In this document: in pieces, positions 1-44,268 of the stretch
Layout: every line of letters begins with the position of its first letter
Numbering within the stretch: the first letter of the stretch is position 1
From: Eudorina sp. 2006-703-Eu-15
Taxonomy: Eukaryota; Chlorophyta; Chlorophyceae; Chlamydomonadales; Volvocaceae
Assembly (NCBI GenBank): GCA_003117195.1
Contig: BDSI01000013.1
Location: 963,146-1,027,145, forward strand
DNA: 64,000 nt
Reading direction: 5' to 3'
The notes under the pieces: model-generated
Databases searched by the model: none
Seen by the model: the letters and a program-made list of their open reading frames with translations, nothing else
What the model was told of the DNA's origin: nothing
Translations under genes and position numbers: made by a program

Positions 1-116
1 TTCATTCTGTGTCCGCGGCGGAGGCTGCTGACTGTTAAACCTTGCAAGCTGAAATATGCTTCCAGATAAGCTGTCCTTTTGCCCATCTCGTCCCTGCTCC
101 GTCATCCGACAATCAG

Positions 117-148
117 TTTTGCCAAACATCACGGCAATCACGGTTTGA
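117..148 (+). CDS. CAP-domain gene 1, terminal exon only (partial, cut by left edge)
   Basis: Only the last exon of a gene lying to the left is present. After an AG acceptor at 115-116, a phase-1 exon of 32 nt reads (V)LPNITAITV and stops at TGA 146-148. This is the same ten-residue tail, same exon length and same entry phase as the last exons of the CAP genes at 10703-12888 and 17518-20525. Bases 1-116 would be its last intron. By homology the protein is a secreted proline-rich CAP (SCP/PR-1) protein, and NIT is a potential N-glycosylation sequon. The call rests on identity to paralogue tails, because the CAP domain itself is outside the window. Confidence 0.75.
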
Positions 149-2852: not shown

Positions 2853-4510
2853 ATGACTTTGATGAAACGCTCAGGAGGGAATGTCATCACCGCCGTTCTT
2901 ATCGTCGCCTTCGCGGCGATGACGACACAACAGGCAGCAGAAGCCCACGTCTTACATGACGCCCGATTCAATCGTGAGAACTGATATTATGCTGAAACCC
3001 TATTGCGCAACCCTATACATAGCGAGATCTTTGTCGCTGGTCGTTCGCTCGGTCTGATCGCATCGCGTCGGAGACGGCTCGAGGCATCTGACATCACCCA
3101 AACCCCTGGTCTTACTTGCACAGGTGCCATAAGGATGGGATCTAGAAGACAAATTACAAGTACAGGCGAAAGCCTAGCAGCAAACGACATGCCAGCGGCA
3201 TCCGCCCCGACAACTACTGTGCCACCGCCAAGCTCACCGACCAACCTGCCCAGCGTCCCACAGCCCTCGCCCTCCAACAGCTCATCACCACCACCACCGC
3301 CGCCGCCTCCTCCGCCGGCACTAGGTGGGTAGATTTGCTGCACGTCCGGCCGTCAGTTAGCATTTAACTGGGTACCCACAAAGCAATGCTGAGCAACCAC
3401 GGAGATTATGCCCGCTGGGCGCGGGGGCCGACTTTGTTGACTTGCCGACCGGTTACACGCGTGTGTTTGCAGGTGGCAAATGCCCTGACGCCGCTGCCAC
3501 TCTCAACCTCACGAACGTATACCGCAACCGGCATCAGGCGGCGAACGTGACATGGAGTGACAGCCTGGCCGTCAGCTCGGCCGCCTACGCCCAGAAGCTG
3601 GCCGCCGGCGGCTGCCAGCTGGTTCACTCGGGCGGCAAGGACTACGGCGAGAACCTGATGATGTGGCAGACCTACCCCAAGCCCGATAACTCGTGCGTTG
3701 GCGCGATCAAGAATTGGTACGCGGAGGTCAAGAACTACAACTTCCTCGCCCAGCGGCCATTCTACGAGAACTGGCCCAAGAACGTCGGCCATTTCACGCA
3801 ACTGGTGAGCTGGTTGCAGCGGCAGCTGAATCAGCAATTGCGCTATTCACCGTACAGCACTTGAGACACGCTTTATCGATTATCTTGTATGCTGACGACA
3901 TGTGCCGTACTCGGTCGCTGTTAGGTGTGGCGCGCCTCGACCTCCATCGGCTGCGGCGTTGGCACCGCGGACGTGTCCATGAGCCTGGGCGGCAACAAGG
4001 TCTACCCGGGCGGCTGCAAGGTGGTGGTCTGCAGGTACAAGGTGCCAGGCAACATCGCTGACGACATGTCGTTCCTCAAAAACGGTAAGCACCAACGACC
4101 CGCTGAGCAGTACTACCGGGCACCTCGCTTGAGCAGCCCCCGGCTCACTAATACCAGGGGTATTGTGGTATCGCTGTGCTCCTTTCTGTTATATCTTTCT
4201 GGGCGGGCATAGCACGGAACATTAGATCGATGCTGCAAGTGCTCCTAGCGGGATAGCTCCTGATGCTCATGGATGGCCGACCCCGCGGCCAAGACGAAGC
4301 ACGCACGCGCGCTGTTGGTCTGTGCCGCATACATGCATGGGGCCTCATTGGCTCTGGTTCACGAAACCTATCCCGGCCGGGTAATGCTCGCGCGCGCCGT
4401 CGCTCGGCTTCAACGTTGCCGTGATGACTAAAACCCCTCCCGCCACCGCCCTCGGCCCTCCCTCCTGCTCCGTTACAGTGTTCCGCAACACCACTGCGGC
4501 CGTCGTGTAA
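2853..4510 (+). CDS. Secreted proline-rich CAP (SCP/PR-1) protein, gene 2
   Basis: Five exons: 2853-2973, 3124-3324, 3473-3804, 3925-4084, 4479-4510; 846 nt, 281 aa, all phases joining. Exon 1 gives a signal peptide (basic MKRSGG start, hydrophobic core VITAVLIVAFAAM, likely cleavage after QQAAEA); a second in-frame ATG lies at 2862. Exon 2 is the shortest proline-rich module of the cluster, ending in ten prolines. The CAP domain starts at GGKCPDA (residue 108). It keeps the family's tetrad: His of YRNRHQA, Glu of YGENL, Glu of WYAEV and His of GHFTQL. Six cysteines fit three disulfides. The final 32-nt exon encodes VFRNTTAAVV with an NTT sequon. CAP proteins are extracellular and in some lineages bind sterols or lipids; a wall or matrix role is inferred from the proline module. 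In this copy and gene 3, CAP residues up to GHFTQL lie in one exon. Confidence 0.88.
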
Positions 4511-5293
4511 GAGGATACGGGAATGATCGAGTGAACGCACGAGACACCGGCGGCAGGATCGACGAACGGAAACGCCTGGTTTGCATGGCTGCGTGGGGTG
4601 GGCGCGGATTGACATGCATCATACAACATCTGTCCTTCCTGCACACACATTTCGTCAGATTCATCATATTTATATACGGCAACTTGCGTGACATTATAAA
4701 TGGCTTATCGATGTATGTGCGCATGTATCGATCGATGACATGCCGGCGGGTTGCGCGCTGCTGCTGCTGCTTGGGGTCGTTTAGGGTGCAGTCCAGCCTT
4801 TCATGAGTCCAGCCTTTCATGACAAGGTAGCTTGACACACAGCGTGGGGAGGGGGCACCAGCCCATCAGGGCTAGGCGATATATATACACTGCGCGTGAT
4901 TTGACGCACGCCAGCTTTCGCCAGGTTTTGAGCGAAGTGCGATTGAGAGGAAGCATCTCGGGGTCATGTCCGAAAATTGCTACGCATGCTGGTCGGCTAA
5001 CGGAAGAATCCTGGGGCCATTGAGGGGCGGGCAGGTCTCGGCGCGCGGTGCGCGTTCTTGCGCTGAGGGAAATTAATTAATAAAGTCGAACAGCAGGTTG
5101 ACGTGCGTGGGTGCCGTACATGCATCACCAGGTGGGGATCTGTTCCGCGGGAAGGTAGTGAGAATAGATCTCTCTTGCATTGCCCCACTCGTGTGCATGT
5201 GGTGAAGTTTGCCCGAGGGTTCTATGTGCTTAGCTGTTATGACCAAGCAAGGAAATAAATATATATGTCGTGGTCTCGTAACAGTGTATTAAT

Positions 5294-5357
5294 TAACCGT
5301 TACAAGGTGGACCCGTATCCCGACCAGGTGTTCCAACGGGCCCAGATAGCTCGTAGG
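5294..5357 (+). repeat. Dispersed short repeat R2, copy 1
   Basis: Begins TAACCGTTACAAGGTGGACC and ends AGATAGCTCGTAGG. Near-identical sequence recurs at 37731-37788 (+) and, more diverged, at 26402-26467 (-); a fragment lies at 45043-45060. No coding capacity seen. Confidence 0.75.
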
Positions 5358-6865: not shown

Positions 6866-7065
6866 TGAATGAATGAACGTTACAGCGGACCCCAGAGGGA
6901 TCACCGGTGTATACCAGGGCAAGTCCCAGCAGGCCTCACCGCCAAGGCGGCAAGACACCTCCACACCTCAACGCCGCACCCAAAAAACACACCGGGCCAT
7001 GACCCCACCCAGCCAGACACCGAAGCAAGCAGAGGCGCGCAGCGGGGCAACACTACCAAAGGGAT
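6866..7065 (+). repeat. TIR element R1, isolated left arm (copy a)
   Basis: Starts TGAATGAATGAACGTTACAG and matches, over about 200 bp, the left arm of the 884-bp element at 30657-31540 and the copy at 38016-38185. I see no matching inverted right end nearby, so this is a solo arm or part of a rearranged element. Confidence 0.75.
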
Positions 7066-10702: not shown

Positions 10703-12888
10703 ATGATGCTGCAAACGAGCAGGCCAGTGGGCCGGCTCCTCGCTGGAGCCATCCTGTCGTTGTGCATGATGACCGCGACGATTGCTCTGGCTTCTGAAGA
10801 TGGGCTCCAAAATCGTAAGTCAAGATATAACTGATAATCTATGATATATTTTTTCGGCAAGCCCAACATTCAATGTGATGTTCGCGACGACAGAAACTGA
10901 CGTAATTCTCCTCCCCGCAACTGGCGCGGCTGCGCGTTGATTAGGTCTTGACACGCTACGTGGTGCTCGACGCCTTTTAGATGACGACGATTTGTTTGGG
11001 GATCTCAAGGCGCCGCCGGATTCGCCCGTCGCCCCACCTCCCAAACGCCCAACGCGGCCGCTGCGGCCACCGCGGCGGCCTTCGCCACCTCCGTCACCAC
11101 GGCCCCCGCGGCCCTCCCGTCCGCCTCGGGATTCCAGGCCACCCACTCCCCCATCCCCCCGAGCCCCACCTCCTCCCAGTCCGAACCCGAGGGTCCGCAT
11201 CCTCTCGCCACCCAGCCCTCCGCCATCCACAAGTCTGTCCCCGCCGCCGCCGCCTCCACCACCACCTCCTCCCCCTCAGAACCCGCCTAACCCAGATGCA
11301 CCAGGTTCGCCCCCACCGCCGCGTGCACCAGTGCTGTCGCCTCCTCCTTCGCCACCTCCCTTAAAGCCGCCGCCACCAAAGGTGGTTCCGAAGCCGCCTC
11401 CGCCTCCGCCTCCGCCACGGCTTACCTCTTCGTCACCCCCGCCAGCTCGTGCGAGTGGGGTCGAGGGCGATAACAACTCGTACCCAGGTGCGATGGAATT
11501 ATCAGCAATAAACCCCCACACCTGCTCTCCTACCAGAATGGGGTTCGACCCTGACGCTCATAGAGGGGCTCTGCGGAATGCAAGAACACCGGTCGGGACT
11601 GAGGATCTACCCTGTAATGGTTGCAAAGGTCACCGGACGGGTTACGGTCTACGAACTTGCTTTCTCAGCTTCCCTGCCAAGGCCCTGGCCATACGCGCCC
11701 TGGCCATCAGCATCCTGCTATCAACACCCGGACATCAGGGCCATGCAACCTTCCTCTTTATCCTCGACCCCCGAGATCTGCGATCAACATGTGCAAATAA
11801 TGGCCATTGATTGCAGGGGGAAACTGCCCTGATGCCGCGGCTATCCTCAACCAGACGAACATCTACCGCGCCCGGCACCAGGCGCCGCCGCTGGAGTGGG
11901 ACGCTGATCTAGCGGCTGGGTCCGCCGCCTACGGCGCGAAACTGGCGAAATCGTGCTCGCTGGTCCACTCCGGTGGCTCCAACTACGGCGAGAACCTGAT
12001 GATGGTCCAACAGATGCCCAAGCCGGATAACAATTGCTTGATTGCTATCAGGAGCTGGTACAGCGAAGTGAGGAACTACAACTTCAACACCGTCAACGCG
12101 TACAGCGATAACTGGCCTCGGAACGTGGGCCACTTCACGCAGCTGGTGAGCGGGCGGGTTTTACATTGCTGAGCGCAGGCTGCCATCCAAGCGCCTGTTA
12201 CCTTAGCAGAGGGACGACGACGGGGCGCAACCTTCCCGTGTTGTCGGTTGTCGGTTGGCACATGTTGGTTGGTGTCGTGGGCGCAAGTGACTGGCTGCGT
12301 ACTTTTTTCGCTGGGCGCTGCGCTGAAGTATGACCTGTCGCAGGGGACCATAACTATCCAGCCTCATCGATTATTTCCAATACACGTCTACCGGCCGGTC
12401 TGACTCTTCCATCCGTCACTTGCCTTCGCTCGACGCTGTCTGAATGAAGGTTTGGAAGTCCACAACGAAGGTGGGCTGCGGCTACGGGTTCGCCGACGTC
12501 CCTATGGTGATTGCGGGGCGCCCATTCATGGGCGGCTGCAAGATCATTGTTTGCCGGTATCAAGTGTACGGCAACATCGCCTGGGACCTGTACTTCAGCA
12601 GAAACGGTGAGGGCAATCGCCGGCCGATGGTAGTTGGTAGTGCGTGGTAATTTGTAGTGTTATCGTGTCGATCTTGTTGTTATAGACGAACAGCATGTTA
12701 CGAATGCGGTTCGCAGCGTGGTGCGGTGATGGGGTGTCTGGCACCTTCCTGTGGCCTCCGGGTCTCCCATCAAGGGGCTGATCTGCCCCTGACGACCGTT
12801 CGTCTCTGACCCTGTCTAAAAACCGCTGCTGCGTCATCCCATCCTCATTCTAACAGTGCTGCCAAACATCACGGCGATTACGGTGTGA
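10703..12888 (+). CDS. Secreted proline-rich CAP (SCP/PR-1) protein, gene 3
   Basis: Five exons: 10703-10814, 10945-11487, 11817-12145, 12450-12606, 12857-12888; 1173 nt, 390 aa. Two adjacent ATGs open a signal peptide (core LLAGAILSLCMMTATIALA, cleavage likely after ALA). Exon 2 starts with an acidic patch (LLDDDDLFGD), then about 150 residues rich in PPR, SPPP and PPPP motifs, as in algal hydroxyproline-rich glycoproteins. The CAP domain (from residue 219, GGNCPDA) keeps the His (YRARHQA), Glu (YGENL), Glu (WYSEV) and His (GHFTQL) tetrad and paired cysteines (GCKIIVC). The tail VLPNITAITV has an NIT sequon and equals the tail of gene 1. Closest in structure to gene 2 (no intron inside the first CAP segment). 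A 330-nt intron separates the proline and CAP exons. Confidence 0.9.
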
Positions 12889-13254: not shown

Positions 13255-13259
13255 TGTAA
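13255..13259 (+). terminator. Candidate poly(A) signal TGTAA for CAP gene 3
   Basis: TGTAA lies 367 nt after the stop codon at 12888, a normal distance for volvocine 3' UTRs. Motif match only. Confidence 0.35.
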
Positions 13260-15021: not shown

Positions 15022-15682
15022 TCCAATCACCAGGCCTATGTATGCCACGCGATGCCTTCAGGCATTGGCGGCGTAAGGACACAGTTCACGCCTGTGGGGA
15101 GTGCATGGACCTGGGACGTCTCGTGTGACAGCGGCACGGCAACGTCTTCATGGTTCGAAACACCGCAATACGTAGAAATGGCCTTGCGGCGCGGAAGTCG
15201 CTGAGGCAGGGCGTCAGACGCTCTCGTCAGGCCCGACGCCCGAGTAGTGGGACCTCGGGCAAGTCGGCTTCGTAGTCTCGCTCTGACAGAGGGGCCATGC
15301 GGACCGAGTCTGGCAGGCGTACCGAAAGAAGCGGCCATTGCCTCGGCTTGTTCAACATTCAGCCACAGGCAGCCATGAGCTGGTCGTGTTGTATCTCAAC
15401 GCGATAAGAAAGAAGCGGTCGGCGAAAATTCAGCAAGATCGGCGGCCAGGCTGGCTTGGATAGCCTTTTCCACATGAAACGGAGCGGATGGACAGACCTC
15501 CGCTGTCATCGCGCATCAGCAAATCACTGGCAATGCGACGCCCACACCACGCGCAGTTATCGGTCTGTGCACTCATGGCAGTGCAACGCCGCACCTGTTG
15601 CCACATTCTCCTGCGAAGGCCAGGCTCTGCTGCTGCTGCCAAGGTCAGTCTATGCATAGGGGAGCTCCCACGGTGTAGGGGG

Positions 15683-17517: not shown

Positions 17518-20500
17518 ATGGGCCGTGCCTCTCATACCAATATATGCCTCACATTGTTCGCCTGCTTGTGGCTCTTCCCATGTTTCCCTATCATGGCGGC
17601 GGCTACTGGGCGGGTCGACGGCCAGTCCAACAACCGTAAGAAATTTGGTTATGCACGACGCCGTACCCAGGAGCCCTAGCCCGGCAAGCCGCAATAAGCG
17701 CGCGACTACAAACAGTCTGACGGTCTGCTTCCGCGATTATTGCCACCGGCTGTAGTTGACACATCCGCCGGGTGGTGCCACCTACGCATCATATGTCCTG
17801 TTCGCTGGTCGCAGGTAGCTGGGGCCACTTCGGTCGTCGTATGTTGTTACAAACGTCACAAGCCACCCCGCTGGAACCAGCAGAACCTGTCGGCCCAGTC
17901 CGGTCAGACCCGCCGCCCCGCCGCCCGCCACCCAGCCCCCGCCCGCCACCCGCTCGCTCGGCCCCGAAAACACCCCCAAGCCCGCCTTCCTCGCCCAGAC
18001 GGCCGCCCACATCCCCACGACCGCCCCCGCGCCGTCCGCCCCCGCGGCCTCCACCTTCGCCCCCGAGGTCACCACCGCCGTCACGAAGCCCGTTGCCGCC
18101 GCAACCAAGCTCTCTGCCGCCGCCACCCAGTTCGCCGCTGCCGCCACCCAGCCCGCCTCCGCCGCCACCTAGCCCCCCGCCGCCGCCACCCAGCACACCG
18201 CCGCCGCCTCCAAGCCCGCCACCACCGCCACCAAGCCCGCAGCCGCCGCCACCAAGCCCGCAGCCGCCCCCACCAAGCCCGCAGCCGCCGCCACCCAACC
18301 CCCCGCCGCCGCCACCAAGCCCGCCGCCGCCTCCACCTAGCCCCCGCCGCCCCCACCTAGCCCGCCGCCGCCGCCTCCAAGCCCGCCGCCGCCGCCACCT
18401 AACCCCCCGCCGCCGCCACCTAGCCCCCTGCCGCCGCCACCTAGGCCCCTGCCGCCGCCACCTAGCCCCCTGCCGCCGCCACCTAGCCCCCCGCCGCCGC
18501 CACCTAGTCCGCAGCCGCCGCCACCCAGCCCGCAGCCGCCGCCACCCAACCCCCGCCGCCGCCACCTAGCCCCCGCCGCCGCCACCTAGCCCCCCGCCGC
18601 CGCCTTCCAGCCCCCGCCGCCGCCACCCAGCCCGCAGCCGCCGCCGCCGCCACCTCGAAGCACGGCGCCGCCACCCAGTCCACCGTGGCTACCATCCAAC
18701 CCCCCTCCCCCACCGTCTCCATCGGCACTTCCCCCAGACGCGCCAGCTCTACCAGCCCAGCCACCGCCCCGCGCATCACCACGTCGGCCACCGCCGCCGC
18801 CGCCGCCGATACCTGCGGAAATCCTGGCAAAGCTGTTCCCTGGTACGGTGGCGAAAACGCTTAATGAAGAGGATTGTTGGCGCTCCCTAAATGCTGAAGT
18901 TTCTATACTGAGGCCGCCATCGTGTCAAGAGTCTTGCTGGGCCCACGGCAGCTCACCTTTTGAGCTGCAGCCACTGGACATTATGCGCTAACGTGCACAT
19001 TGATACACGGACACACACAACCTGCGGGCGGGTCTCTTCTCAAAACACACACACACAACCTGTACCCACGTCCTGATGTAACAAAGAATACTGTGAGTTC
19101 CACAAAAGGGACCATTGATGCCCACCAGAAAGTTACCCTGGTAGGCACCAGAGCATGTTGTGTCGTCCATGCTTCGATTAGGCCACAGATATTTGTGGCC
19201 CAAAGACCGCCGTCAGTTGGCCCTGCCCCGTGCGCAACCCTCCTTCCATGCGGCCCCGCAGGCGGCAACTGCCCGGACGCTAACGACGTATTTAGCGTCA
19301 CCAACACCTACCGCGTTCGGCACCAGGCGCCACCGCTGGTTTGGAGCGAGTCGCTGGCCCGGGACGCCACCGCGTACGCGGCTGCCCTGGCCGCCAAGGG
19401 CTGCCCGCTGCAGCACGCGTCCTACGGCGAGAACCTGATGCAGGTGGACGGGGTCGGGATTGATGTCGTACACACGTGGCAGTCGCACGTTCTCGCTCCG
19501 CTCGACGACCCAGATAGAACGATGCACGGCGCGGCTGCGTGTGTGTCTGTCCCGGGTCCGCTCGCTGCAGCATGCAAGGAACACCACCGCGGAAGCAGGT
19601 TGCGGTGGGGGACGTCATCGGTGACGGCCGCAGGAAACTCACGCCACACACACTGCGTGGCCTGGGTGGTTATGGGGCCCGGGTGGTTATGGGTGGGCTT
19701 CTCATTAAACACACACTGCGTGCGCTGGCGTGCGTGTCTGCAGGTCCAGAGCTATCCCAAGCCAGCGCCCACCTGCCTGGGTGCGATCCAGGGGTGGTAC
19801 TCCCAGGTGCAGTTCTATGACTTCAACGCGAGGCGAGCCTACTCCGACAACTGGCGGCGGGACATCGGGCACTTCTCGCAGCTTGTGAGTGCGGGGCCCT
19901 GGAGGGGCTCGGAATTCCTCGCGGGCAGAGCAGGTCGTCGTGTTCGGTGGTGCTGCTTTATACCCTCCCTTGACGATAAATGGGTGTTGCCAAAGGCGCA
20001 TAAAGAAAGCCCCTGCTGCCGCCGCCGCCATGGCCGCCGCAGGTCTGGAAAGCATCCTCCTTGTTCGGATGCGGCGTGGGGCTCGGCAACGCAACCATTA
20101 CCCTGGGAACCAGGCAGTACCCCGGCGGCTGCAAGATGGTGGTGTGCCGCTATCGCAACATCGGGAACATCGCCTCGGACTTCGAGTTTGCACGCAACGG
20201 TGCGTGTCGTACAGATGCCGTGCACAGCGGTTTCAGGGGTGGTGCTGGCGGGTCTGGTCCCGCTCCTTTTGTAGGGCGTTGTGGGGCCGCGGGTGCTTCG
20301 TTGCCCTGTCGGCGGGGCACCGCCGGGCTTCCTCCTCGTTAGCACCGATCATCTGAGCACTCATGTAAGTTTCGTCCATTCCCTGTCGCATTTAAGATGG
20401 GAGCGCCTGTCGTCGTGCGCTTGTCGTGTTATGTTGTGCCGCTCATGACGCTGTGTGCCCTGCCGCCGGCTGTTGCTGCTGCGCCCCGCGCAGTGTTGCC

Positions 20501-20525
20501 GAACATCACGGCCATCGTGTACTGA
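17518..20525 (+). CDS. Secreted proline-rich CAP (SCP/PR-1) protein, gene 4 (proline exon frame interrupted as read)
   Basis: Six exons: 17518-17635, 17815-18842, 19262-19443, 19744-19884, 20043-20199, 20494-20525. The signal peptide is hydrophobic (CLTLFACLWLFPCFPIMAAA). Exon 2 is extensin-like, with long runs of SPPPPPP-type units. As read, four units are 17 nt instead of 18 (18342-18358, 18551-18567, 18571-18587, 18612-18628), each short of one C. Taken literally, the frame closes at TAG 18567-18569. The four deficits together restore exactly the phase needed by the downstream exon, so I treat them as probable homopolymer errors; with them the protein would be about 553 aa. The CAP domain (GGNCPDA) is split by an extra phase-0 intron after YGENLMQ. 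The tetrad Glu is Gln here (WYSQV, codon 19804-19806). The tail is VLPNITAIVY with an NIT sequon. Confidence 0.8.
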
Positions 20526-23593: not shown

Positions 23594-26500
23594 TTATACA
23601 ACGATAGCGCTGATGTTGGCCCTTACTGCAAGATTTGCAAGGAAAGGCGCGCGGGTCGGGGTTATGATGGTCGAGGAGTCAGGTCGACGGGCAACGGTGT
23701 CGAAATACGGTGACGTGCAGGCGGCGCGCGCAAGCCGTTTGCGTTTCCTCCTAACGGGACCTGACACATTCCGTTGTATAACAACCGAAAACGTGCAACC
23801 GTCCTCATCGTACTTATTGGCCACCTGCTCAGGAGGAAAAGTTGAATTGCGGATGATGGCGGTGCTGGAGACGGTGCTGGAGGGTCCCTCCCTACCATCC
23901 GCGGGTTCAGGCCGTTGGAACACACTGACCCCTTACACCCAACCTCCCGGCCCGGCCCGGTCCCGCAATCCAGTGCGAGGCCACCCACCGTTCAAGGCAA
24001 ACATATAATCCGAGGCAACATTCCCGATGTTGCGGTAGCGGCACACCACCATCTTGCAGCCGCCGGGATACTGCTTGGTGCCCAGGGTAATTGTTGCGTT
24101 GCCGAGCGCCACGCCGCAACCAAGACGCGAGCTGTCCGCCCACACCTGCACACCGCCGGAAGCACCCACCCACATCCCTTAGTTACGGAGCGCGAAGGTA
24201 AATCGAGTGGAGGTTTCGTCGCCGGAGGGAGCGAGGGTCACGGTCGCGTGTGCAACGGTTTGCAAACGCAGGCCAACAAGAGCGCGGGATACTATCCTAG
24301 CTCGGGTGTTCGAGACTGTGTTGCCCACACTCACACTCACACCCACACGGGTGTGTGTGAATCGTTACATATCTGCCGGGCCGACACTGGCCGGGGGCGC
24401 TAACCCGCCCCATACGGGAGACCGCCGAAGCACTTTCCCCCGGATACGGGGGATAGGGGCGTAAGGGGCCTCTGTCCCCTCGCTCTCAACCAAGGGCGCG
24501 TGCCCGATCCCCGAGGATCGGTGACCGCTGTGCCCCCTCAAGGGAGTGGGCGAAGGCCCATCCCGGGCAGTCTGCGCCTCGCAGTCCGCTGTTCAACCTC
24601 CTCAAGTCCTTGCAGCACCCAGGGCGCGTTTCGGAGGCGCGCCCCTGCTTGGTGCGGTAAAACTAGCCTGGTCCCGCGTCCCAACCTAATCGTACTAACT
24701 AGGGTTGCACCCTCCGGCAGGCCTGCCTGCCCAGCTGAGCCAGAGCGAGGCGTCTCGCACGCGTCAGGCCTTGCTGGGTCCGGGTATGCAGTCGGGTGCT
24801 CCATGATGGGGCTATGGTTTGCACAAGGCAGCAGGTGTGTTGTCTCGGCATCGACCGTTACTAGGCATTTGGCATGCGTGGCCGTGCGAGGAACAGAGGA
24901 CGTGACTGCTGGACGGACGCGACCGCGCCTCCCCCAAAAGGGCCGTCGGTGTCTATCAGCTACCACCATCACCCCCAGCAGCCACCTCTCTCACCCCCCA
25001 ACAGCCCCCCTCCCCCCCAACAGCCACCCTCTAGCCCAAGGCCCAAGCCGGGGAGCCTCAGCCAGGGGCGTTGGCGCGCGTTGAAGAGCGACTGGTGCTG
25101 CGGATGCTGCTTGACTCCGAAACCAAAAGAGTAGAGACTGACATGTGCAGCTTCCCCGAGTTCCCAGCACGGTGTGCTGGCTGCGACTGTCATGACCCGC
25201 GGGTCCACTGCAGCAGCATCTATGTGATGCGATGTGCCGCAGTTTTGTGTTCCGCAGCCGGTCAAACCCACCAGCTGCGAGAAATGGCCGATGTGACGTG
25301 GCCAGTTGGTCGTGAACGCGTACTTGGCGGTGAAGTCATAGAACTGGACCTGGGAGTACCACCCCTGTATCGCACTCAGGCAGGTGGGGCCGGGCCTGGG
25401 GTAGCTCTGGACCTGCACGACGCGTGCGGTGCGGGAGGGGCACTAAGGAACGGTGGCCGCGGCCGAGGGGCCATTGCGTTCGGTGGCGGGGTATTGCGAC
25501 AGGGCGGTAGGGCAGTGCAGGCAGGACAAGCTAGGCAGGGGCGGTTCCGTCCTCAGGAAGGGCCCCCCGGGCCCCTGGGCCCCTGCAAGGCGAATCTCTG
25601 GTTGGGGCACAGGTGTCGCCGGTCCTTCGTCTGCTTAGAACGGGAATCAGGCGCGCGCCCTTGGTTGAGCGCGAGGGGCGGGAGAGAGGCCCCTTACGAG
25701 GCACGACCCTCTCCCCCGTGTCGGGGAGAGAGTGCTTTGGCGGTCTTTTCTTCAGGGCTGGGTTGGCAGCCATTGACCAGCGCCAGGCCCGGTCAGATAT
25801 TTAACGATGCAGACACGTCAACCCAAACACACACAAAGTCACAGAAGCGCGCGCGCGCCCACCTGCATTAGGTTTTCGCCGTACGACGCGTGTTGCAGCT
25901 TGCACTCCTTGGCGGCTAGGACCTTGGCGTACGCGGTGGCGTCCCGGGCCAGCGACTCGCTCCAAACCAGCGGCGGCGCCTGGTGCCGGATGCGGTAGGT
26001 GTTGGTGACGCTCAGCACGTCGTCCGCGTCGGGACAGTTGCCGCCTGCGGGGCCGGAAGTGGGTGCGGGTTGCGCCATGGAAGGACCGGCGCCGGACATC
26101 GGTGTTGGGCAGGCGCATGCCGGCAGCAGGGGCCCTTGGTGGGCCGGACACACCAACACGAGGTACTCTGACAGCGAACCCCCTTTCGTGCAACTTCCGA
26201 GAAGGAGACACCCGGAAGTCGCTACACGCATTCATAAGCTTGCAGAAATGCGCAGCGTTGATGCCATTGTCCGATTGCACCCGCCCGAGACCCAGGCCGT
26301 TCAGCCGCCACACCACCCCGCACAACCCACAACCCAAGACCTACACACAACCCGCCCCTCCCTCTAAACACACACGCACAGCCACACACACAGGTGAGGC
26401 GCCTACGAGCTATCTGGGCCCGATAGATCCCCCAACCGCCGAGTAAGGGTCCACCTTGCAACGGTTACAGGTAGGGTTCCCGGGCGTTCGTCCGATTGAG

Positions 26501-27693
26501 GCATTGGCGCACCGGGGAGGGTTTCTACTGGAGCCGGCGGCGGCGGCGGAGGAGGAGGTGGGGGAGTAAAGGACGTCCCTGTTGGCGGCAGCTGAGGTGC
26601 CTGCGAGGCCGCGGATGGAATGAGCTGCGGCGCTGGTGACGGAGGCAAAGGTGGAGGGGAACCGGTGGAGGGCTGCGGCGGCTTCGCGGATGGCCCGGGT
26701 TCTGTGGTGTGGGACTGGGGTGGCGGCAAGGGCCCAAGGGTGGAGTCCGTAGTTACAGCTGTAACGGGGTTCGGCGGCGGCGCGCCCCTCAGGCGGAGTT
26801 CCGGGGGCGGCTGCGGCGCGGCTACGCGCGGTGGATTGCGTTGGGGTGGCGGCGGCGACGGCGGCCGCGGTGGCGGCGGTGACAGGCGTGGGGACGTTGC
26901 TGGGGATGGCGGCGACGGCGACGGCGGCCGCGGTGGCGGCGGCGACAGGCGTGGGGACGGCGACGGCGGCGATAGGCGTGGGGACGGTGGAGGCGGTGCA
27001 GCCCGGGCAGGGGGTGGCCGCCGGGTCGGACTGGAGATTGGTTGCGTGCGTGGTGGAGAGGCCGCAGGCGGGCGCCGTGTCTGGGGCGGTCGGACACGAA
27101 CTTTTGCTGGCGAAGATGGAATCGGCGAAGGGAGTGGACTGGGTTTCGTTGGTGGCGGTGGCGGAGGAGCGGGGGGTAGCCGGCTGGGAACAGGCGCCCT
27201 GGGGCTTCCCGTCGAGGGGTAGACTGCAGGCGGTAAGGTAGTACCCGTTGGCAACTGGGACGAGGTCATATGAGGAGGAGGTGGAACGCGTGGCTTAGTT
27301 TGGGCTGGTGGGGGGCTGCGTGTCGGTGGGCGCGGTCGTAGCGGTGGCGGCGGCGGTGGCGGTGGCGATGGAGGCGGTGGGGCGGCGGGCAGTCGCCAGG
27401 AGGTTGGCGGTGACAGCCGCGGCGGCGGAGGCCGCACAGCCAGAGGGGGCGATCGCCAGAAGAGCGACATTTTCACCTCTGCGATGTGCGTCAAGGGAGT
27501 AACCCGAAAGGATCACGTAGAATCACAGCGGGGCGCCGTCCCGCCGCATCGAGCCCACCCGAGCGACACGCAAACGGAGGTCAAGGTCCGCCACGCCGGT
27601 GTCCCGCTTACCGGCGGACAGCGCCTGTCGGTGTATGAGTGACTGAACCAGGATGAATAGCGTATATGACATCATGGGTTTGACTGCGCGCAT
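23594..27693 (-). CDS. Secreted proline-rich CAP (SCP/PR-1) protein, gene 5
   Basis: Six exons on the minus strand: 27693-27612, 27478-26513, 26044-25863, 25412-25272, 24145-23989, 23625-23594; 1560 nt, 519 aa, phases consistent throughout. Exon 1 encodes a signal peptide (MMSYTLFILVQSLIHRQALS). Exon 2 is a 322-codon module rich in PPPP, SPPP and SPRLSPP repeats, ending at ETLP(G). The CAP domain starts at GGNCPDADD and shares with gene 4 the extra phase-0 intron after YGENLMQ and the change of the tetrad Glu to Gln (WYSQV, codon 25350-25352). Six cysteines are kept. The tail VRANISAIVV has an NIS sequon. Closest relative in the window is gene 4. Introns 3 and 4 carry an inverted pair of repeats around the 141-nt exon. 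Confidence 0.88.
24363..24510 (+). repeat. Intronic repeat R4, arm 1
   Basis: Begins CGTTACATATCTG and runs to about CCAAGGGCGCGTGCCCGAT. It matches the reverse complement of 25646-25806 with moderate divergence. It lies in the 1.1-kb intron of CAP gene 5 after the 141-nt exon. Confidence 0.7.
25646..25806 (-). repeat. Intronic repeat R4, arm 2 (inverted)
   Basis: On the minus strand it begins CGTTAAATATCTG and contains GTAAGGGGCCTCT and CTCAACCAAGGGCGCG, as in arm 1. It lies in the intron before the 141-nt exon of CAP gene 5, so the two arms bracket that exon (25412-25272) in opposite orientation. Confidence 0.7.
26402..26467 (-). repeat. Dispersed short repeat R2, diverged copy inside an intron
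   Basis: Read on the minus strand it starts TAACCGTTGCAAGGTGGACC and ends GGGCCCAGATAGCTCGTAGG, matching the copy at 5294-5357. It sits in the intron between the proline exon and the CAP exon of gene 5. Confidence 0.65.
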
Positions 27694-30656: not shown

Positions 30657-31540
30657 TGAATGAATGAACGTTGCAGCGGACCCCAAAGGGATCACCAGTG
30701 TATAGCAGGGCAAGCCCCAGCAGGCCCCACCGCCAAGGCGGCAAGACGCCTCAACGCCTCAACGCCGCACCCAAAAAACACACCGGGCCATGACCCCACT
30801 CAGGCAGACACCGAAGCAAGCAGAGGCGCGCAGCGGGGCATCATTACCAAAGGGATGGTGTGACTAATGAGTGATTGTTTAAATGCCGCCGATGCGAATA
30901 CTCAGAACATGCTTGGCACAGGGCGCTTCGGCCTTCGGACCGGGGCTACAGCCTTTTCCCCAGCAATGGCAGCAGATTGGCGGCGGGTTCAGTCGGTTGC
31001 GCGCACGGCAAATCTCGGGCCGGCGTGTAATTTCCCCAACTTGTCGTGACAGCTCGGGAGAGCAGCATGGCAAGGGTACAGAACCCCAGTACATCAGGCG
31101 GCAGAGTCACTGGTGCCTTGCGTCCATGATCGGCACCGATAATCCCGGTACCATTCATCCATTCAAGCCCCATCTCGGGCCGAGCATGGCTTTGCAGCTC
31201 AACATGGAAAATGCGTAAGGCGATGAAGAGTAAACGCCGGGCACAGTATACACCGATCACGCAGTGTGCCTAGACAGTAGTCACCCAAAGTTTTGGTCGA
31301 CTGGGGAAAAGAAACTGGAAGACATCTCACAGTGGCAGCATAAACAAACCAAGCACCCTTCCCATAAAGGGCAAGGCAAATCCATAAAAGCGCCCCTCAT
31401 GAAAGGGGCGCCTTCATGGGGGGCCGCCTTTATGGATTTGCCCAGTTGGGCCTCCCGCGACGTGGGTGGACCTCGGTGGGGCTCGCCCTTTACACACCGT
31501 TGATCCCTTTTCAGGGTCCGCTGTAACGTTCATTCATTCA
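30657..31540 (+). mobile_element. 884-bp DNA-transposon-like element R1 with terminal inverted repeats
   Basis: The left end starts TGAATGAATGAACGTTGCAG; the right end, read in reverse, starts TGAATGAATGAACGTTACAG. Similarity between the ends continues for about 65 bp. No transposase frame is visible, so it is non-autonomous. A target duplication cannot be defined because a TGAA run abuts the left end. A strong hairpin (31375-31442) lies just inside the right end. Left-arm copies lie at 6866-7065 and 38016-38185. Confidence 0.75.
31375..31442. repeat. Nested perfect hairpin inside element R1
   Basis: The outer stem is GGCAAATCCATAAA (31375-31388) with its perfect complement at 31429-31442. 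An inner stem GCGCCCC (31390-31396) pairs with 31405-31411. This subterminal structure is typical of foldback or MITE ends. Confidence 0.75.
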
Positions 31541-32294: not shown

Positions 32295-35222
32295 ATGAGG
32301 CGAGACGCCATGCCCAACTCGTGCCCAAAGCCTGTACTGAGGATATTTACGCACATATATCTTGCATATGTATTCATCGCGACCACCAGAACGGGTAAGT
32401 CCATGTCTTCGTAGCAGCATCGAGCCCGTGACATTTTTACTTGCACGCCTTCGGAAGCACAAGCGCCCGCCTTCAACCACCCAACATTACATTTTTGAAT
32501 CCTTACCTGATGCAGGTACGGCTAGCGCCGGTATGGCGTCGGCTGTCGTCGCCCGTTTGAGGCTGCCGCCGCCGCAGCAGCAGCAGCCGAACCCTAGCCC
32601 GCTCCGGCCAACCGCACCCGGGCCGCCGTCACCGCCTCCACGACCCCGCCAACAGCGACAGCCGCCGTCGCCGTTGCCGCCGTCGCCTCGCCAGCGGCAG
32701 CCTCCGCCCCCACCACATCGTGCTGGGTCCCCGACGTCGCCTCCCCCTCCCTCACCGCTTCCCCCACCGCGCCAGGGCCGCAAGAGGCCCGCGCCACCGT
32801 CTCGCAGGCCCTCGCCCCGATCACCCCCGGCGGTTCCGCCACCGCTGCCGCTGCCGCCGTCGCCTGTTGCCTGGCAAGTCTCCCATCCAGTGGCGTCGCC
32901 GCCGCTGCCGCCTCCGCCGTACCGCTCACGTCTCCCATTAATGTTCTTTCTCACAGCCCCCCGTCTACGAACGCTGCCAGCATCGCCACCACCACCACCG
33001 CCGCCGCCGCCGCCGCGGCCGCCTTCAAACCCGCCTCCGAATGCCCCCGTCGACGCGGGGAGAAGCCAACAGCTGCCCGCCACGCCCCGTTCACCGCAAC
33101 AGCCTGTGGCACAGAACCCATCACCACCACCACCACTGCTGCCTTCCCCGTCGCTGCCATCGCCGTCCCCTGCGCGCCTACCGCCGCCGCTGAGCGTTCC
33201 TGGGCCGTCGCCGCTGATGCCCAGTTCCTCGCTCGACACACGTTCTTCCCAGCTACCGTCGCTTTTTTCACCCACCGAAGGTGGCTTCACAGGTATGTAT
33301 GTGGGCGGTACGGGACCGGTATGTGGGCAGTACGGGACCGGTATGTGGGCAGTACGGGACCGGTATGTGGGCAGTACGGGACCGGTATGTGGGCAGTACG
33401 GGACCGGTATGTGGGCGGTACGGGACCAGTATGTGGGCGGTACGGGACCAGTATGTGGGCGGTATGGGACCCGTCCGCTGTCCAAGTCACCGCCTCCAGA
33501 CTGGGCCTTGGCGCTTCTCAACACAGCACCGGGATGACCGGGCAGCGAATCGGGAAATCTTGCAGAGGGGAGTGAGGGAGGGAGCAGGGAGGCCACAGCC
33601 AAGCAGGACCCAGCTGACCCGGGAACCATACGACAGGAGGGCGACGCCAGCTGCTGCCGCGGCCAATCCGCCCGCGTCCTCGGCGCCCCTCGCCCTCACA
33701 ACAGGCGGCCAGTGCGACGACGCGGAGGAGGTGGTCAACGCCACCAACGTCTACCGTGTCCGGCACCAAGCCAAGCCGCTGCAGTGGAGCTCGGGCCTGG
33801 CGGCCGCGGCGCAGGCCTACGCCGAGGTGCTCGCGTCCCAGCTTTGTGTCCTGAGACACGGCTCCTACGGCGAAAACCTCATGATGGTGGGTCCGTGGTG
33901 CACGATGCATGACGGGGCTTAGCTAACACTCGAGCGACGTGTTAGCCAACTGGGACTTGGTGTGCTTCCGAGCACGAAGGGCGTGCCGCGCTCACCCCCG
34001 TCCCCACCTGGCCCTCTTGTGGCCCTCTTCCCACGCACAGTGGCAGCAGTACCCGCGCCCCAGCGAGTGGGGCAGCTGCCTGGGCGCAGTCCAGGGCTGG
34101 TACAGCCAGGTGGCGATGTACGACTTCGACACGGACCGGCCGTTCACGGTCAATTGGCCTCGCCACACCGGCCACTTCTCCCAAGTGGTGAGTGGGGGAG
34201 TCCTGCTGCTTGCTGGAGTGCCAATACGGCGTTGGGAACACACCGCTGGAAGCGAGACGCATTGGTTGCCGTACATCCTCGGGTAGCGCCCGGGGCGGGC
34301 AACGCTGCCATCCGGCTGCGTGTGTGTTTTGCCGTACGTCCTGGAGGCCCCGCCGTTGCCGGCCGATGGCTGGGGCGTTGTATGGAGGGCCCTCAAGCCA
34401 TTTGCGCTGTATGACTGAATGGATGAATGAATGCTGATGCGGACATCACAGCCAAGTTATCAGTTCCTACCAACGCTGCTGTCTTGGCCTCCCTGAATCT
34501 GCCCCGCGTGCTCTGGGCATGTGGTGCTTCCGTCGGGACCGCTGTTCCGTCCTTTGGCCAGACGTATTACGACACAAACCCCGGACATAATGCTGGTCAC
34601 TGTATCATTGTCGCAGACGCCCTTGTCCACCCCCTATCATCCCTGCCCCGTACCAGGTGTGGGCCAGCAGCTCCGTGTTTGGTTGCGGCGTTGCTGTGGG
34701 CGACTACCCGATCACCCTGGGCAGCAAGACCTACCCAGGCGCCTGCAAGATGGTGGTGTGTCGTTACCAGGCGCCCGGCAACGTCGCCAGCGATGCCCAG
34801 TTCCTCAAGAATGGTGAGGGTCCCCGCTGTGACTGCTGCGCTGGGATTGTGAGGCGCTCGGGCCGGGCCTGTGGTACAGGCGCACCGGGCGTAATGCGCC
34901 ACTACCGTATTACGAGCTCGCACCCCTTGCCTTTGGGACAGGGTCGGAAAGCGTATCCTGTTCATGGGGTGTATCTATCCGGGTGGTGGTGGTGGTGGTG
35001 GTGGTGGTGGTGGTTTCCCAGTGTGCGCCCGCGCTGCGCGGTTAGGGCACACACGCTTGCATCCCACGGAGAGGGCCCCCGGCCCCACTCCTACTCCTGG
35101 AAGTGGCTGCCGCACTTGCCTGAGCTCGCCCTCGTCCCTCATGGTGTGCTCCGGTCGGATTGCCTTCCCGTCCGCCTGCCTCGCCCCCAGTGCGGCCCAA
35201 CATCACCGCGTGTGCGCTCTGA
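32295..35222 (+). CDS. Secreted proline-rich CAP (SCP/PR-1) protein, gene 6
   Basis: Six exons: 32295-32394, 32516-33292, 33705-33886, 34041-34187, 34657-34813, 35191-35222; 1395 nt, 464 aa. Exon 1 is a weaker signal peptide (basic start, core VLRIFTHIYLAYVFIATT). Exon 2 (259 codons) is rich in SPPPP and PPRP motifs. The CAP domain starts GGQCDDAEEVV and, as in genes 4 and 5, has the phase-0 intron after YGENLMM and Gln in place of the tetrad Glu (WYSQV, codon 34107-34109). The other tetrad positions remain (YRVRHQA, YGENL, GHFSQV). The tail is VRPNITACAL with an NIT sequon plus an extra cysteine. The proline-to-CAP intron holds a 22-bp minisatellite, and the last intron an 11-unit GGT run. 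Confidence 0.88.
33297..33472 (+). repeat. 22-bp minisatellite, eight copies, in CAP gene 6 intron
   Basis: Eight tandem copies of a 22-bp unit beginning GTATGTGGGC and ending GTACGGGACC plus one variable base. The copies differ at a few positions only. The array starts four bases after the GTATGT donor of intron 2 and itself contains repeated GTATGT donor-like sites. Confidence 0.9.
34982..35014 (+). repeat. (GGT)11 microsatellite in CAP gene 6 last intron
   Basis: Eleven perfect GGT units between exons 5 and 6 of gene 6. Confidence 0.9.
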
Positions 35223-37830: not shown

Positions 37831-38015
37831 AAAGACAAGTCCACGCGAGGCTTTGTGTTGCGCAGCAGTCGATGTCCGCACCTTCCCTCTCGTTGTAATC
37901 GTGCATGTGCCTTGACTGGCTCTGGTCCTGCATCCTGCCGTACTGTGTCTTTGGTAGGGGCCTTACTTTTACTGGGTTGCCAACTCATACATCAAATTTC
38001 CAAATACAAAACTTA

Positions 38016-38185
38016 TGAATGAATGAACGTTACAGCGGACCCCAAAGGGATCGACGGTGTATACCAAGGCAAGCCCCAGCAGGCCCCACCGCCAAAGGCG
38101 GCAAGACACCTCCACACCTCAACCGCAATAAACAGACACATCGGGCCATGACCCCACCCAGACAGACCCTGAAGCAAGCAGAGGC
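38016..38185 (+). repeat. TIR element R1, left arm (copy c)
   Basis: Starts TGAATGAATGAACGTTACAG and follows the arms at 6866 and 30657 for about 170 bp before diverging at 38185. No matching right end seen. Confidence 0.75.
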
Positions 38186-41098: not shown

Positions 41099-41103
41099 TT
41101 ACA
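41099..41103 (-). terminator. Candidate poly(A) signal TGTAA for CAP gene 7
   Basis: TTACA on the plus strand is TGTAA on the minus strand, about 256 nt past the gene 7 stop at 41359. A second one lies at 41036-41040. Motif match only. Confidence 0.35.
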
Positions 41104-41358
41104 CCTTCCCCGTCCCCCATCTCGTCCCTGCTTCACGGATCTGTGGAAGGCGGACCCCTCAGCCTGACCCAACCCGACCCGATCACGCACCGTCGCCCGT
41201 CCGCATCCCGGCGATGCGACCAGCCAGCGGCCCGGAGGCCAGCGCCGAGGCCAGACAGTCCCCCGCGGCCCGGCCGACGGGCAGCAACCACGCGGGGACG
41301 GCCGCGCGCAGAGGTCGGGGCTCCGGCAGCGCCACCGGCAGTGCCGGAGACGGACTCG

Positions 41359-44268
41359 TTACTCGTCTGGGGGCGCACTGAGAGGCAAGACAGAGTCGGC
41401 CTCCACCACGGAGGGCTCCCCGGCTGTGGCGAACCTCATGTCGTCCACATCTTGGTCGCTCAGCTGGAAGCTGGGCGGGTCGCCGCCGCCGTCCCCGACG
41501 GAGGCGGAGCCGGAGGGTGAGGGGGCGGGTGAAGGTGAGGAGGAGCTCGGATCGGCTGCATCCGCGGCTTTGGTGGATAGGGAGCTCGGCGGCAGCGGCT
41601 GCAGCACTGCGGGGCATGGATGGCCGGGAAGCCGGGGAGGTACGGCAGGGAGGAAGTAATACGATGGGGACACGGTAGGCGCCACTTCTCAGTTAACGGG
41701 TGACGGCTGGGCCCACGTCTGCCATTACCGCCACCACCACCCGGTGGCGATGGCGGTGCCGGTGGTGGCGGTGGTGGCAGACAGACATCGCAAGTCGCCT
41801 CACCGTTCTTCAGGTAGTCTATGTCCGTCTGCCAGTTGCCGGGAGGCTTGTAGCGGCACACTATGACCTTGCAGCCCGCCATGGTGACCTTGCCATTGAA
41901 CAGCGTGAGGGGCGAATCCGCGGTGGACATGCCGCACCCGAAGCTGCTGGTGCCCCGCCACACCTGAGAGCGGGGCGGGCGGGCCGGGACAGGCCGGGAC
42001 GGGCCGGGGCGGGGCGGGGCGGGCGATACAGCGGAACAGGTTCAAGGTGAGTAGGTGACAAGCTTACGACGGAGCTTTGAGGATATAAGGATCATCGATG
42101 ACAACGTATGACGGAGGATACGGCAACCCCCAGGCATGTCCCCGTAGTGGCCGCTAACCCTCTGGCCTACGGCCAGCAGTAGTAGCAGAAGTAGCAGCAG
42201 CAGCAGCAGCAGCGACGGCAGCACGCTGACGCGCCCTCACCAGCTGCGTGAAGTGCCCGGTGACCTGCCAGTTGTTGTTGAAACAGGGCATCGGCACATT
42301 CCACTGGAAGAACTGCACCTCCTCGTACCAGCTCTGTACGGCAAACGCGCAGTTCGTCCAGTTGTCCGGCCGGGGGTAGCGCCGCACCTGCCGACACCCA
42401 CACATCCAGTCACACATCCAGCCACCCACCCATGGCCGGGGGCGGTTCACGTCCGTTCTGTTAGGTGCCGTGACAGGTGGTTCGGGGGACAAACAGGCAG
42501 GCAGGCAGGAAGATCGGTTGCTTCAAATCTGCCGTACGCACCAGTATGAGGTTCTCGCCGTACGTCTTGCCCCCCGAGTGCACCAGGGTGCAGTTTGCCG
42601 CGAGCTTCTGCGCATACTGCCGGGAGGCGTTGGCCAGGACCTTATCCCACACCAGCGGCTCGGCCCGGTGGATGGCGCGGTAGTAGTTGGTGGCGTCGAT
42701 CACCGCCCGGATGTCCGAGCAGCCCGACACTGCGTGTTGGTGCGCGTCAGCCAGTTAGTTGGTTTGGAGGACCGAGAGAGGGAGCGTGTCGTGTGCGAGG
42801 GCTGCGTGTGTGCGATGGGGCGGGGCGGGGAACAGGGGAGCAGGTACGGTATGGTGGCTCCGAAGCCCATGTTGTAAGGGGCATTAGGAGTTGGGAGACT
42901 GGGTGGCACGGCACGGAGGCAGCCGTCGCCGCCTCAACAAACACCGTACGGCATTAAAGGGCCCAACAGACGTCGGGTAGCACAGGGCCCCCGGTGAGCA
43001 GGCCGGGCCAATATATCAGCCCGCCCGCGGAGCCACCCTTAATGTGACCGCTGACCATTATTACGGTCTAACTTTTGTGGGCAACAGCCGGAGTCTGCCG
43101 GAGTCTCGGTATGTACGACATGGAAGTGCGCGTCGGTACGATACCGTACCGTTGATTAGAGGTAACGTTGCGTTGTCTGCTGGCGGCGCCGGCGGCGGTG
43201 GTGGCGGCGGCGGTGGCCTGGGGACAGGTGGCGGCGGCGGTGGCGCCGGCGGCGGCGCCGGCGGCCGGGGCGGTGGCGGCGGTGGCGACGGCGGCATAGG
43301 AGGCCGGGGCGGTGACGGCGGCGGCGGGGGCGACGGCGGCGGGGGTCGCGGTGGTGGCCGCGGTGGCGGCGACGGCTGCGGCGGCCGGGGAGGCGGGCGA
43401 ATGGGCGGCGACGGTGGCGGCGGCCGCAGTGACGGCGGCAACGGCCGGGGAGACGGTGGCAGCGGCAATGGCCGGGGCGACGGTGGCGGGGGCTGCGGTG
43501 ACGGTGGCGGCGGCCGCGGCGATGGTGATGGCGGCGGCGGCCGTGGTGACGGTGGTGGCGGCGGCGACGGTGGCGGCGGCGGCGACGGTGGTGACGGCGA
43601 TGGAGAGCTCGGTGGTTGCCGAGGTGAAGGACGCGGCGGCGGCGGTCGGGTGGGACCTGGCGGCGGCCGCGGAGGCGGCGGCGGCCGCCGCGGTGGCGGC
43701 GGCCGCGCCTGCTGCAGCATTCGCGCTGCCCTAGCGCCCAGATCTACGGACGACATGGCCGCATCTGCGAGTCTGAGCCGATGCTGCGCAGCAGTCGCAG
43801 CAGCGGCAGCGGCCGCAGACTGTCGGTCGGAATGGAGCAGCCGATCGGCCGCTTGCCGGAGCTGGGCAAGCGTGTTTCGCCCTTGGTTTCGGAGGATCGC
43901 TGGGTCGATGGTCGTTGCTGAGGTGCGACTGGTGCGACTGGTGCGTGAGGGGTCCTGTGATGGCCCCCCTGAGAGGCGTCGGAGGCGAGGTCTGGCGTCC
44001 GTCACGGTTCCTGCAGAGTACGACAACAAGGCGGAAGCTCAGAGGCGCATCGCCATCAAGCTTAGTCGCTGTTATTGTGCCGGAATGAGAAATCAGTTTA
44101 CAAAATGCGATTCGGCCGATCGATGAACAGATGGGCCGTTGCAGCCTTGCTGGAGCAAAAGCCAAACGTTTGCAACTTACGGTCCTCGGCGCTCGTAAAA
44201 GAATATCCTGTGAGTAGTAGTAGTATGAAGGGGAAAAACATGGCCTGAGTGGTTGCGCAGCGAGTCAT
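41359..44268 (-). CDS. Secreted proline-rich CAP (SCP/PR-1) protein, gene 7, with acidic C-terminal tail
   Basis: Six exons on the minus strand: 44268-44181, 44010-43150, 42729-42542, 42387-42241, 41963-41804, 41606-41359; 1692 nt, 563 aa. The signal peptide is clear (FFPFILLLLTGYSFTSA). Exon 2 starts with a helical, Ala/Arg-rich stretch (QLRQAADRLLHSDRQS, RMLQQA) before about 180 residues of SPPPP/PRPP repeats. The CAP domain (SGCSDIRAV) is the most diverged: the tetrad is kept with Glu (WYEEV), an extra Cys appears (MPCFNNN), and the phase-0 intron follows YGENLIL. Instead of the ten-residue NxT tail, the last exon starts VLQPLPPSS and runs 81 residues through Ser/Pro to an acidic end (QLSDQDVDDMRF, APPDE). 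A competing acceptor near 41377 would give a different frame; I prefer the longer exon because its start mimics the paralogues' VLPN. Confidence 0.82.

What the first reader, a model, noticed from the sequence alone, without database searches (positions are those of the whole stretch)
1..44268. Cluster of seven secreted proline-rich CAP (SCP/PR-1) genes in 44 kb
Seven paralogues with the same exon plan (signal peptide, proline-rich rod, CAP domain, tiny tail exon) fill the left two thirds of the window in mixed orientation (+,+,+,+,-,+,-). CAP proteins are widespread secreted proteins, and proline-rich rods are the hallmark of volvocine matrix proteins. A tandem family combining both looks like a matrix or wall toolkit expanded by local duplication. 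The first copy is cut by the left edge, so the cluster continues outside.
Basis: partly seen in the sequence, partly recalled or inferred. Interest (0 to 1): 0.8.

Follow-up and report, generated by a model that had tools for sequence, protein, structure and literature searches.

The report
Algal rod-and-head wall-type protein genes
A colonial green alga carries a row of related genes, each predicted to make a secreted protein with a proline-rich stalk and a CAP (PR-1-like) head, and neighbouring genes seem to have swapped heads and stalks; it is a real and little-studied family of a known kind, not a new kind of system.

Summary
The window carries six complete CAP domains plus the tail exon of a seventh gene, in the stated orientations. 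The array on this contig has 14 CAP genes over about 91 kb; the window holds its right half. Usual plan: signal-peptide exon; exon with a basic GRRxL-type motif and the proline-rich rod; two or three CAP exons; a 10-residue tail exon with an N-glycosylation sequon. Exceptions: copy 3 (rod not modelled), copy 11 (rod changes frame in a repeat), copy 14 (no tail exon found). Proteins annotated in Volvox carteri, V. africanus and V. reticuliferus have the same architecture, with near-consecutive locus tags in the last two, so the family is in databases as 'SCP domain-containing'; my paper searches found no description of it. Head pairs show purifying selection. New here: heads and rods have separate histories. 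Copies 2 and 9, 42 kb apart, share a nearly identical head block between dissimilar flanks; copy 8 is a copy-7-type gene whose head exons are mostly copy-10-like; copy 6 shares a rod start, but not a head, with 7 and 8. Gene conversion is the simplest account. Secretion, wall location and ligand binding are inferred; no transcripts or proteomics were available.

The parts
117..148 (+). copy 8: tail exon (rest of the gene lies left of the window)
   Evidence: identical tail peptide in copies 7 and 10
2853..2973 (+). copy 9: signal-peptide exon
   Evidence: model, no transcript
3124..3324 (+). copy 9: exon with SRR motif and short proline-rich rod (66 aa, 30% Pro)
3473..4084 (+). copy 9: CAP exons 3473-3804 and 3925-4084
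   Evidence: 98.2% and 96.2% identical to copy 2
4479..4510 (+). copy 9: tail exon VFRNTTAAVV*
10703..10814 (+). copy 10: signal-peptide exon
10945..11487 (+). copy 10: exon with ARRLL motif and proline-rich rod (180 aa, 44% Pro)
11817..12606 (+). copy 10: CAP exons 11817-12145 and 12450-12606
   Evidence: head exons largely shared with copy 8
12857..12888 (+). copy 10: tail exon VLPNITAITV*
17518..17635 (+). copy 11: signal-peptide exon
17815..18842 (+). copy 11: GRRMLLQ motif and proline-coding stretch with a 21-bp repeat; reading frame changes several times, so no continuous rod was modelled; the end is a candidate donor only
19262..20199 (+). copy 11: CAP exons 19262-19443, 19744-19884, 20043-20199
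20494..20525 (+). copy 11: tail exon VLPNITAIVY*
27612..27693 (-). copy 12: signal-peptide exon
26513..27478 (-). copy 12: proline-rich rod exon (321 aa, 42% Pro)
23989..26044 (-). copy 12: CAP exons 26044-25863, 25412-25272, 24145-23989
23594..23625 (-). copy 12: tail exon VRANISAIVV*
32310..32394 (+). copy 13: signal-peptide exon (weak hydrophobic stretch)
32516..33292 (+). copy 13: proline-rich rod exon (258 aa, 38% Pro)
33705..34813 (+). copy 13: CAP exons 33705-33886, 34041-34187, 34657-34813
   Evidence: second acceptor corrected
35191..35222 (+). copy 13: tail exon VRPNITACAL*
44181..44268 (-). copy 14: signal-peptide exon
43150..44010 (-). copy 14: proline-rich rod exon (286 aa, 44% Pro)
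41804..42729 (-). copy 14: CAP exons 42729-42542, 42387-42241, 41963-41804; 3' end unresolved

Best explanation
A tandem family of secreted glycoproteins. Each is predicted to have a signal peptide, a short basic stretch (a possible processing site), a proline-rich rod probably hydroxylated and glycosylated like other volvocine rods, and a C-terminal CAP head with six conserved cysteines and a His/Glu tetrad. The rod most likely fixes the protein in the wall or colony matrix and the head binds a ligand there (lipid, glycan or peptide), much as wall-bound yeast Pry3 acts through its CAP domain. The array grew by local duplication, and heads and rods were then exchanged between copies, most simply by gene conversion. 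Shown by sequence: the array, CAP identity, the recurring exon plan, purifying selection on heads, mosaic histories, the same architecture in Volvox. Inferred: secretion, wall location, hydroxylation, ligand binding, conversion as the mechanism.
Against: No transcript, protein or localisation data. The strict sterol-loop motif and the CAPE signature are absent. Four of 14 heads (3, 11, 12, 13) carry Gln for a tetrad Glu, so not all heads need have the same activity. Copies 3, 11 and 14 do not fit the whole plan. The CAP1 exon of copies 7 and 8 taken whole (89.7%) is about as alike as their introns 1 and 2 (89.8, 89.4%), so that part of the mosaic case rests on CAP2 (84.7%) and on the pattern inside CAP1, not on whole-exon identity. 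Two stray copy-7-like sites occur inside CAP2 and one inside the copy-10-like part of CAP1, with a further one at the end of CAP2.
Confidence: 0.6

Rival explanations
1. Defence proteins: the heads act like plant PR-1 against oomycetes, chytrids or other attackers, and the rod only keeps them near the cell. Copy number and head exchange would reflect an arms race.
For: CAP heads are PR-1-like; multi-copy arrays with exchanged heads; PR-1 acts on sterol-auxotroph oomycetes according to PMC10189770 (passages).
Against: No sign of positive selection in pairwise averages (dN/dS 0.22-0.44; this does not exclude single sites). CAPE signature absent in 14 of 14, sterol-loop spacing not met in the loop in 14 of 14.
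Confidence: 0.2
2. Sexual or cell-contact role: a wall-bound CAP head tunes gamete interaction, as over-expressed Pry3 does in yeast.
For: Pry3, a GPI-anchored wall CAP protein, inhibits mating through conserved CAP residues, E96 and H113, independently of lipid binding (PMC7340583, abstract and passages).
Against: No expression data; the analogy is to an over-expression effect, and loss of Pry3 did not alter mating.
Confidence: 0.1
3. The mosaic pattern is an assembly artefact or uneven divergence, and the array is an ordinary set of tandem duplicates.
For: Similar arrays are hard to assemble; the frame changes in copy 11's rod show that errors or decay are possible.
Against: Copies 2 and 9 lie 42 kb apart with dissimilar flanks, and even their shared block differs at several sites, so they are not one stretch assembled twice. 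In copy 8 the switch from 7-like to 10-like lies inside an exon and the intron start stays 7-like. I could not look at reads.
Confidence: 0.1

Closest known systems
'SCP domain-containing' proteins of Volvox (VOLCADRAFT_86230; Vretimale_15470, 15477, 15482, 15483, 15487; Vafri_20690, 20700; VaNZ11_015305, 015307)
   Same: Signal peptide, rod, CAP head and similar C-terminal tail in the full-length ones; heads 47-65% identical to the queries used; tail sequon in 8 of 10 and tetrad Glu in 10 of 10.
   Different: No 1:1 partners except a possible old pair (copies 11-13 with Vafri_20700 and Vretimale_15487, support 88/77); Vretimale_15470 is partial, Vretimale_15487 ends differently and VaNZ11_015305 lacks the sequon.
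Yeast Pry1/Pry3 and human GAPR-1 (CAP superfamily)
   Same: Best solved relatives by sequence (Pry1, 3.4e-17) and by fold (GAPR-1 1smb, Pry1 5jys); Pry3 is also wall-bound with a CAP head.
   Different: Rod is proline-rich and N-terminal; longer loop before the second tetrad His and a longer last strand region; no GPI signal was looked for.
Plant PR-1
   Same: CAP domain, secreted.
   Different: Plant PR-1 entries matched here have no rod; CAPE signature absent in 14 of 14 heads.
Pherophorins
   Same: Secreted volvocine proteins with a proline-rich rod and globular parts, multi-copy with species-specific branches (PMC9818292, passages).
   Different: Globular part is CAP; Pfam reported only CAP in the six proteins scanned.

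Membership tests
CAP superfamily (PF00188) | Match to the CAP profile above the curated cut-off | tested here: met
   6 of 6 window proteins
CAP superfamily (PF00188) | CAP fold | tested here: met
   AlphaFold2 model of relative Vretimale_15483, not of a window protein; head blocks mostly pLDDT 85-98; Foldseek best hits GAPR-1 and Pry1
CAP superfamily (PF00188) | Tetrad of two His and two Glu (as described in PMC10189770) | tested here: inconclusive
   Complete in 10 of 14; second Glu is Gln in copies 3, 11, 12, 13. Positions were assigned by alignment from my knowledge of GAPR-1/Pry spacing, not by structure superposition
Sterol-binding CAP (caveolin-binding loop) | Aromatic pattern OXOXXXXO in the loop between helices 3 and 4 | tested here: not met
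   0 of 14 in the loop (spacer longer by one or more residues); one match in copy 1 and one in Vretimale_15477 lie elsewhere
Plant PR-1 | C-terminal CAPE signature PxGNxxxxxPY | tested here: not met
   0 of 14 and 0 of 10 relatives
Hydroxyproline-rich glycoproteins | Long proline-rich rod after a signal peptide | tested here: met
   12 modelled exon-2 products with 22-50% Pro, 39-321 aa; short and weak in copies 2, 4, 5 and 9; copies 3 and 11 not modelled
Hydroxyproline-rich glycoproteins | Hydroxylated, glycosylated prolines | not testable with these tools
   needs proteomics
Pherophorins | Pherophorin domains joined by the rod | tested here: not met
   Pfam reported only CAP in six window proteins; copies 9 and 10 were scanned full-length, copies 11-14 as heads only

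The most novel reading that the evidence does not exclude
The array works as a cassette system in which heads and rods are recombined between copies, partly from spliced templates: in copy 8 most of both CAP exons became copy-10-like while the start of the intron between them stayed copy-7-like, as expected if a spliced cDNA was the donor. The alga would thereby hold a changing set of head-on-rod combinations for its matrix, including heads with an altered metal site (Glu to Gln, probably arisen twice) that may act differently.
Probability: 0.15. Interest if true: 0.65.

Novelty: new variant of a known kind. Interest (0 to 1): 0.45.

Why it matters
Matrix proteins are central to how volvocine algae became multicellular, and the papers I saw deal mainly with pherophorins. 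A multi-copy CAP-on-rod family present in the Volvocaceae sampled is a candidate matrix family that can be tagged in V. carteri, where one member (VOLCADRAFT_86230) was found. The module exchange shows a way to make new head and stalk combinations from existing genes.

Tried and rejected
Pherophorin membership: not supported. Sterol-loop motif and CAPE peptide: not met, so no function was assigned on those grounds. Positive selection: not seen in pairwise averages of the 11 pairs computed; site-wise tests were not run. Pseudogene array: not supported for the heads (all 14 translate without stops; dN/dS below 0.5); left open for copy 11's rod. Rfam: no match in the window. Chlamydomonas or Gonium relatives: none listed by the three protein searches, which are limited by shared words and by length, so absence is not proved. 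NCBIfam: no family for four relatives. Descriptions of CAP/SCP/PR-1 proteins in volvocine walls: none recognised in search listings nor by term searches inside PMC6313938, PMC5704591, PMC9818292 and PMC12377771; only open-licence papers are held. Pfam on 30 other ORFs of the window: one match above its cut-off, Pyr_redox_2; rhodanese, New_glue, Adeno_PV and UvrD matches stayed below theirs. Rod figures are wrong for many rows because my pattern missed the CAP start; those replace them. In one search the first 115 bases of the CAP intron of copies 7 and 8 scored only 84.1% because copy 8 has a deletion after base 80; one search counts the first 80 (1 mismatch). Species: 181,203,499 bases in 3033 contigs is close to the published female Eudorina assembly (184,032,255 bp, 3180 contigs; PMC6123790, passages), but identity was not established.

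Full report
What is there. The window lies at C13:963146-1027145 of a 181-Mb genome. A Pfam CAP search of that genome gave 49 matches; 14 of the 49 are the copies of one array on C13, and tblastn with head-exon pieces found both CAP exons for each of the 14. From the start codon of copy 1 (916576) to that of copy 14 (1007413) the array spans about 91 kb. Copies 9-14 have their CAP domains in the window, and copy 8 reaches in with its tail exon at 117-148.

Gene models. I built models with scripts and by eye; there are no transcripts behind them. Exon 1 encodes a hydrophobic signal peptide and ends in phase 1 in the 13 copies where it was modelled (all but copy 3). Exon 2 starts, in copies 1, 2 and 4-11, with a basic motif such as GRRxL, GRKLVQ, GRQL, SRRQI or ARRLL; copies 12 and 13 show none and copy 14 has RLRRL. 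It runs into a proline-rich stretch: the 12 modelled exon-2 products have 22-50% proline and 39-321 residues, so in copies 2, 4, 5 and 9 the 'rod' is short. In copy 1 the rod is fused to the first CAP exon. The CAP domain lies on two exons in copies 1-10 and on three in copies 11-14. A tail exon of 32 bases (41 in copy 6) was found in 13 of 14 copies, each with an N-glycosylation sequon. All 54 modelled introns are GT-AG (the first intron of copy 11 was left out, and one acceptor of copy 13 was corrected there). This is partly by construction, because signal-peptide, rod and tail joins were chosen among GT and AG sites; the CAP1-CAP2 joins (14 of 14) were placed by homology and only then seen to be GT-AG. 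Copy 3's rod, copy 11's rod and copy 14's 3' end are unresolved.

Identity of the head. Pfam CAP matches 6 of 6 window proteins. The closest solved sequence is yeast Pry1. Six cysteines are invariant in the 14 heads; of the four tetrad positions three are invariant and the fourth, Glu in WYxE, is Gln in copies 3, 11, 12 and 13. Copy 3 groups with copies 1, 2 and 9, while 11-13 form another group, so the change probably arose twice. By its spacing to the next tetrad His in Pry1 (17 residues, alignment) this Glu should correspond to Pry3 E96, which is needed for Pry3's effect on mating; that correspondence is my inference. The caveolin-binding loop spacing and the CAPE signature, as given in PMC10189770 (passages), are not met. 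An AlphaFold2 model of the V. reticuliferus relative has a confident head and a low-confidence N-terminus (mean pLDDT 79.6), and Foldseek ranks GAPR-1 and Pry1 first.

Relatives. Three protein searches listed relatives of this family in Volvox carteri (1), V. africanus (4 entries from two annotations), V. reticuliferus (5, one partial) and Pleodorina starrii (2 models without a rod). Nine of the ten Volvox entries have rod, head and N-terminus in the same order; the tenth is partial. In 8 of 10 the tail sequon is kept. Tags 15470-15487 on one contig, 20690/20700 on another and 015305/015307 point to clusters in those species. These gene models support joining rod and CAP exons; I did not check whether they rest on transcripts. 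Two more distant proteins, Vretimale_10304 (P0009) and a Pleodorina one (P0015), also combine a proline-rich stretch with CAP. In the head tree (26 rows, 7 of 23 inner branches starred, 8 open) most groups are species-wise, but copies 11-13 group with Vafri_20700 and Vretimale_15487 at 88/77, which suggests at least one subfamily older than the species split.

Histories of head and rod. dN/dS of the 11 head pairs computed is 0.22-0.44. Copies 2 and 9, 42 kb apart, are 98.2% (CAP1), 90.8% (intron) and 96.2% (CAP2) identical, while upstream, signal-peptide exon, intron 1, rod, intron 2, intron 4, tail and downstream segments are 38-63% identical, against 39-46% for shuffled sequence. Copies 7 and 8 are recent duplicates (upstream 96.9%, signal-peptide exon 98.4%, introns 1 and 2 about 89.5%, rod 96.0%), but CAP1 is 89.7% and CAP2 84.7%, though coding sequence should be better kept than introns; their intron 3 is 73.9% over 153 aligned bases, intron 4 62.5% and the downstream 300 bases 64.6%, figures pulled down by large insertions or deletions. 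CAP2 of copy 8 is 96.8% identical to copy 10, and CAP1 95.0% over 300 bases. Within CAP1 copy 8 is copy-7-like up to base 118 and copy-10-like from base 139 on, with one exception; CAP2 is copy-10-like with three exceptions. Of 85 informative sites (36 like 7, 49 like 10) the longest copy-10-like run is 22, reached in 1 of 100,000 shuffles (sites unique to copy 8 or with three states were dropped before the test, and neighbouring sites are not independent, so the figure is only a guide). The intron between the CAP exons starts copy-7-like: 1 of 80 mismatches with copy 7, 51 of 80 with copy 10 ungapped. Copy 6 shares the first 110 bases of exon 2 with copies 7 and 8 (87 and 86%; two other pairs give 50%), but its signal-peptide exon is 52-53% and its CAP exons 59-62% identical to theirs. 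Gene conversion is the simplest account. A spliced template for copy 8 is possible, but two separate DNA tracts, or an intron too different to be copied, would leave the same picture.

Elsewhere in the genome. CAP genes also occur in small clusters on C18 (three), C184 (five) and other contigs; at least two of the C184 genes have proline-rich sequence after, not before, the head.

Function. Secretion and a wall or matrix site are inferred from signal peptide and rod. The closest functional analogy is Pry3 (PMC7340583, abstract and passages). I judge a matrix-fixed binding head most likely; defence and mating roles are less likely but not excluded.

Verdict. A real, well-kept gene array of a family that databases hold under a domain name only and that my searches did not find described.

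Noticed in passing
G000:C184:12162-21304 (L022, L023): Five further CAP genes in tandem; in the two whose downstream translation was printed the proline-rich stretch follows the CAP domain.
   Followed up: partly
G000:C18:1095480-1107805 (L015, L016): Three CAP genes, head exons 40-45% identical to copy 10 over the first CAP exon and with a similarly extended second exon; possibly the sister group of this array.
   Followed up: partly
window 60233-63228, minus strand: ORFs with a Pyr_redox_2 match (8.9e-14, above cut-off) and, nearby, a rhodanese match just below its cut-off; perhaps one oxidoreductase-rhodanese gene.
   Followed up: no
window 54706-55047: 67-bp tandem repeat, 5.1 copies, 100% matches.
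   Followed up: no
window 6866-7065, 30657-30856, 38016-38185: Dispersed repeat, three copies 87-94% identical, between CAP genes.
   Followed up: no
window 33297-33471: 22-bp tandem repeat, 8 copies, starting within a few bases of the splice donor after copy 13's rod exon.
   Followed up: no
window 18075-18645: 21-bp proline-coding repeat of copy 11, 27 copies, across which the reading frame changes.
   Followed up: partly
window 41804 and downstream, minus strand: Copy 14 has no recognised tail exon; reading past the predicted donor gives a further short proline-rich stretch, so its 3' end may differ.
   Followed up: partly
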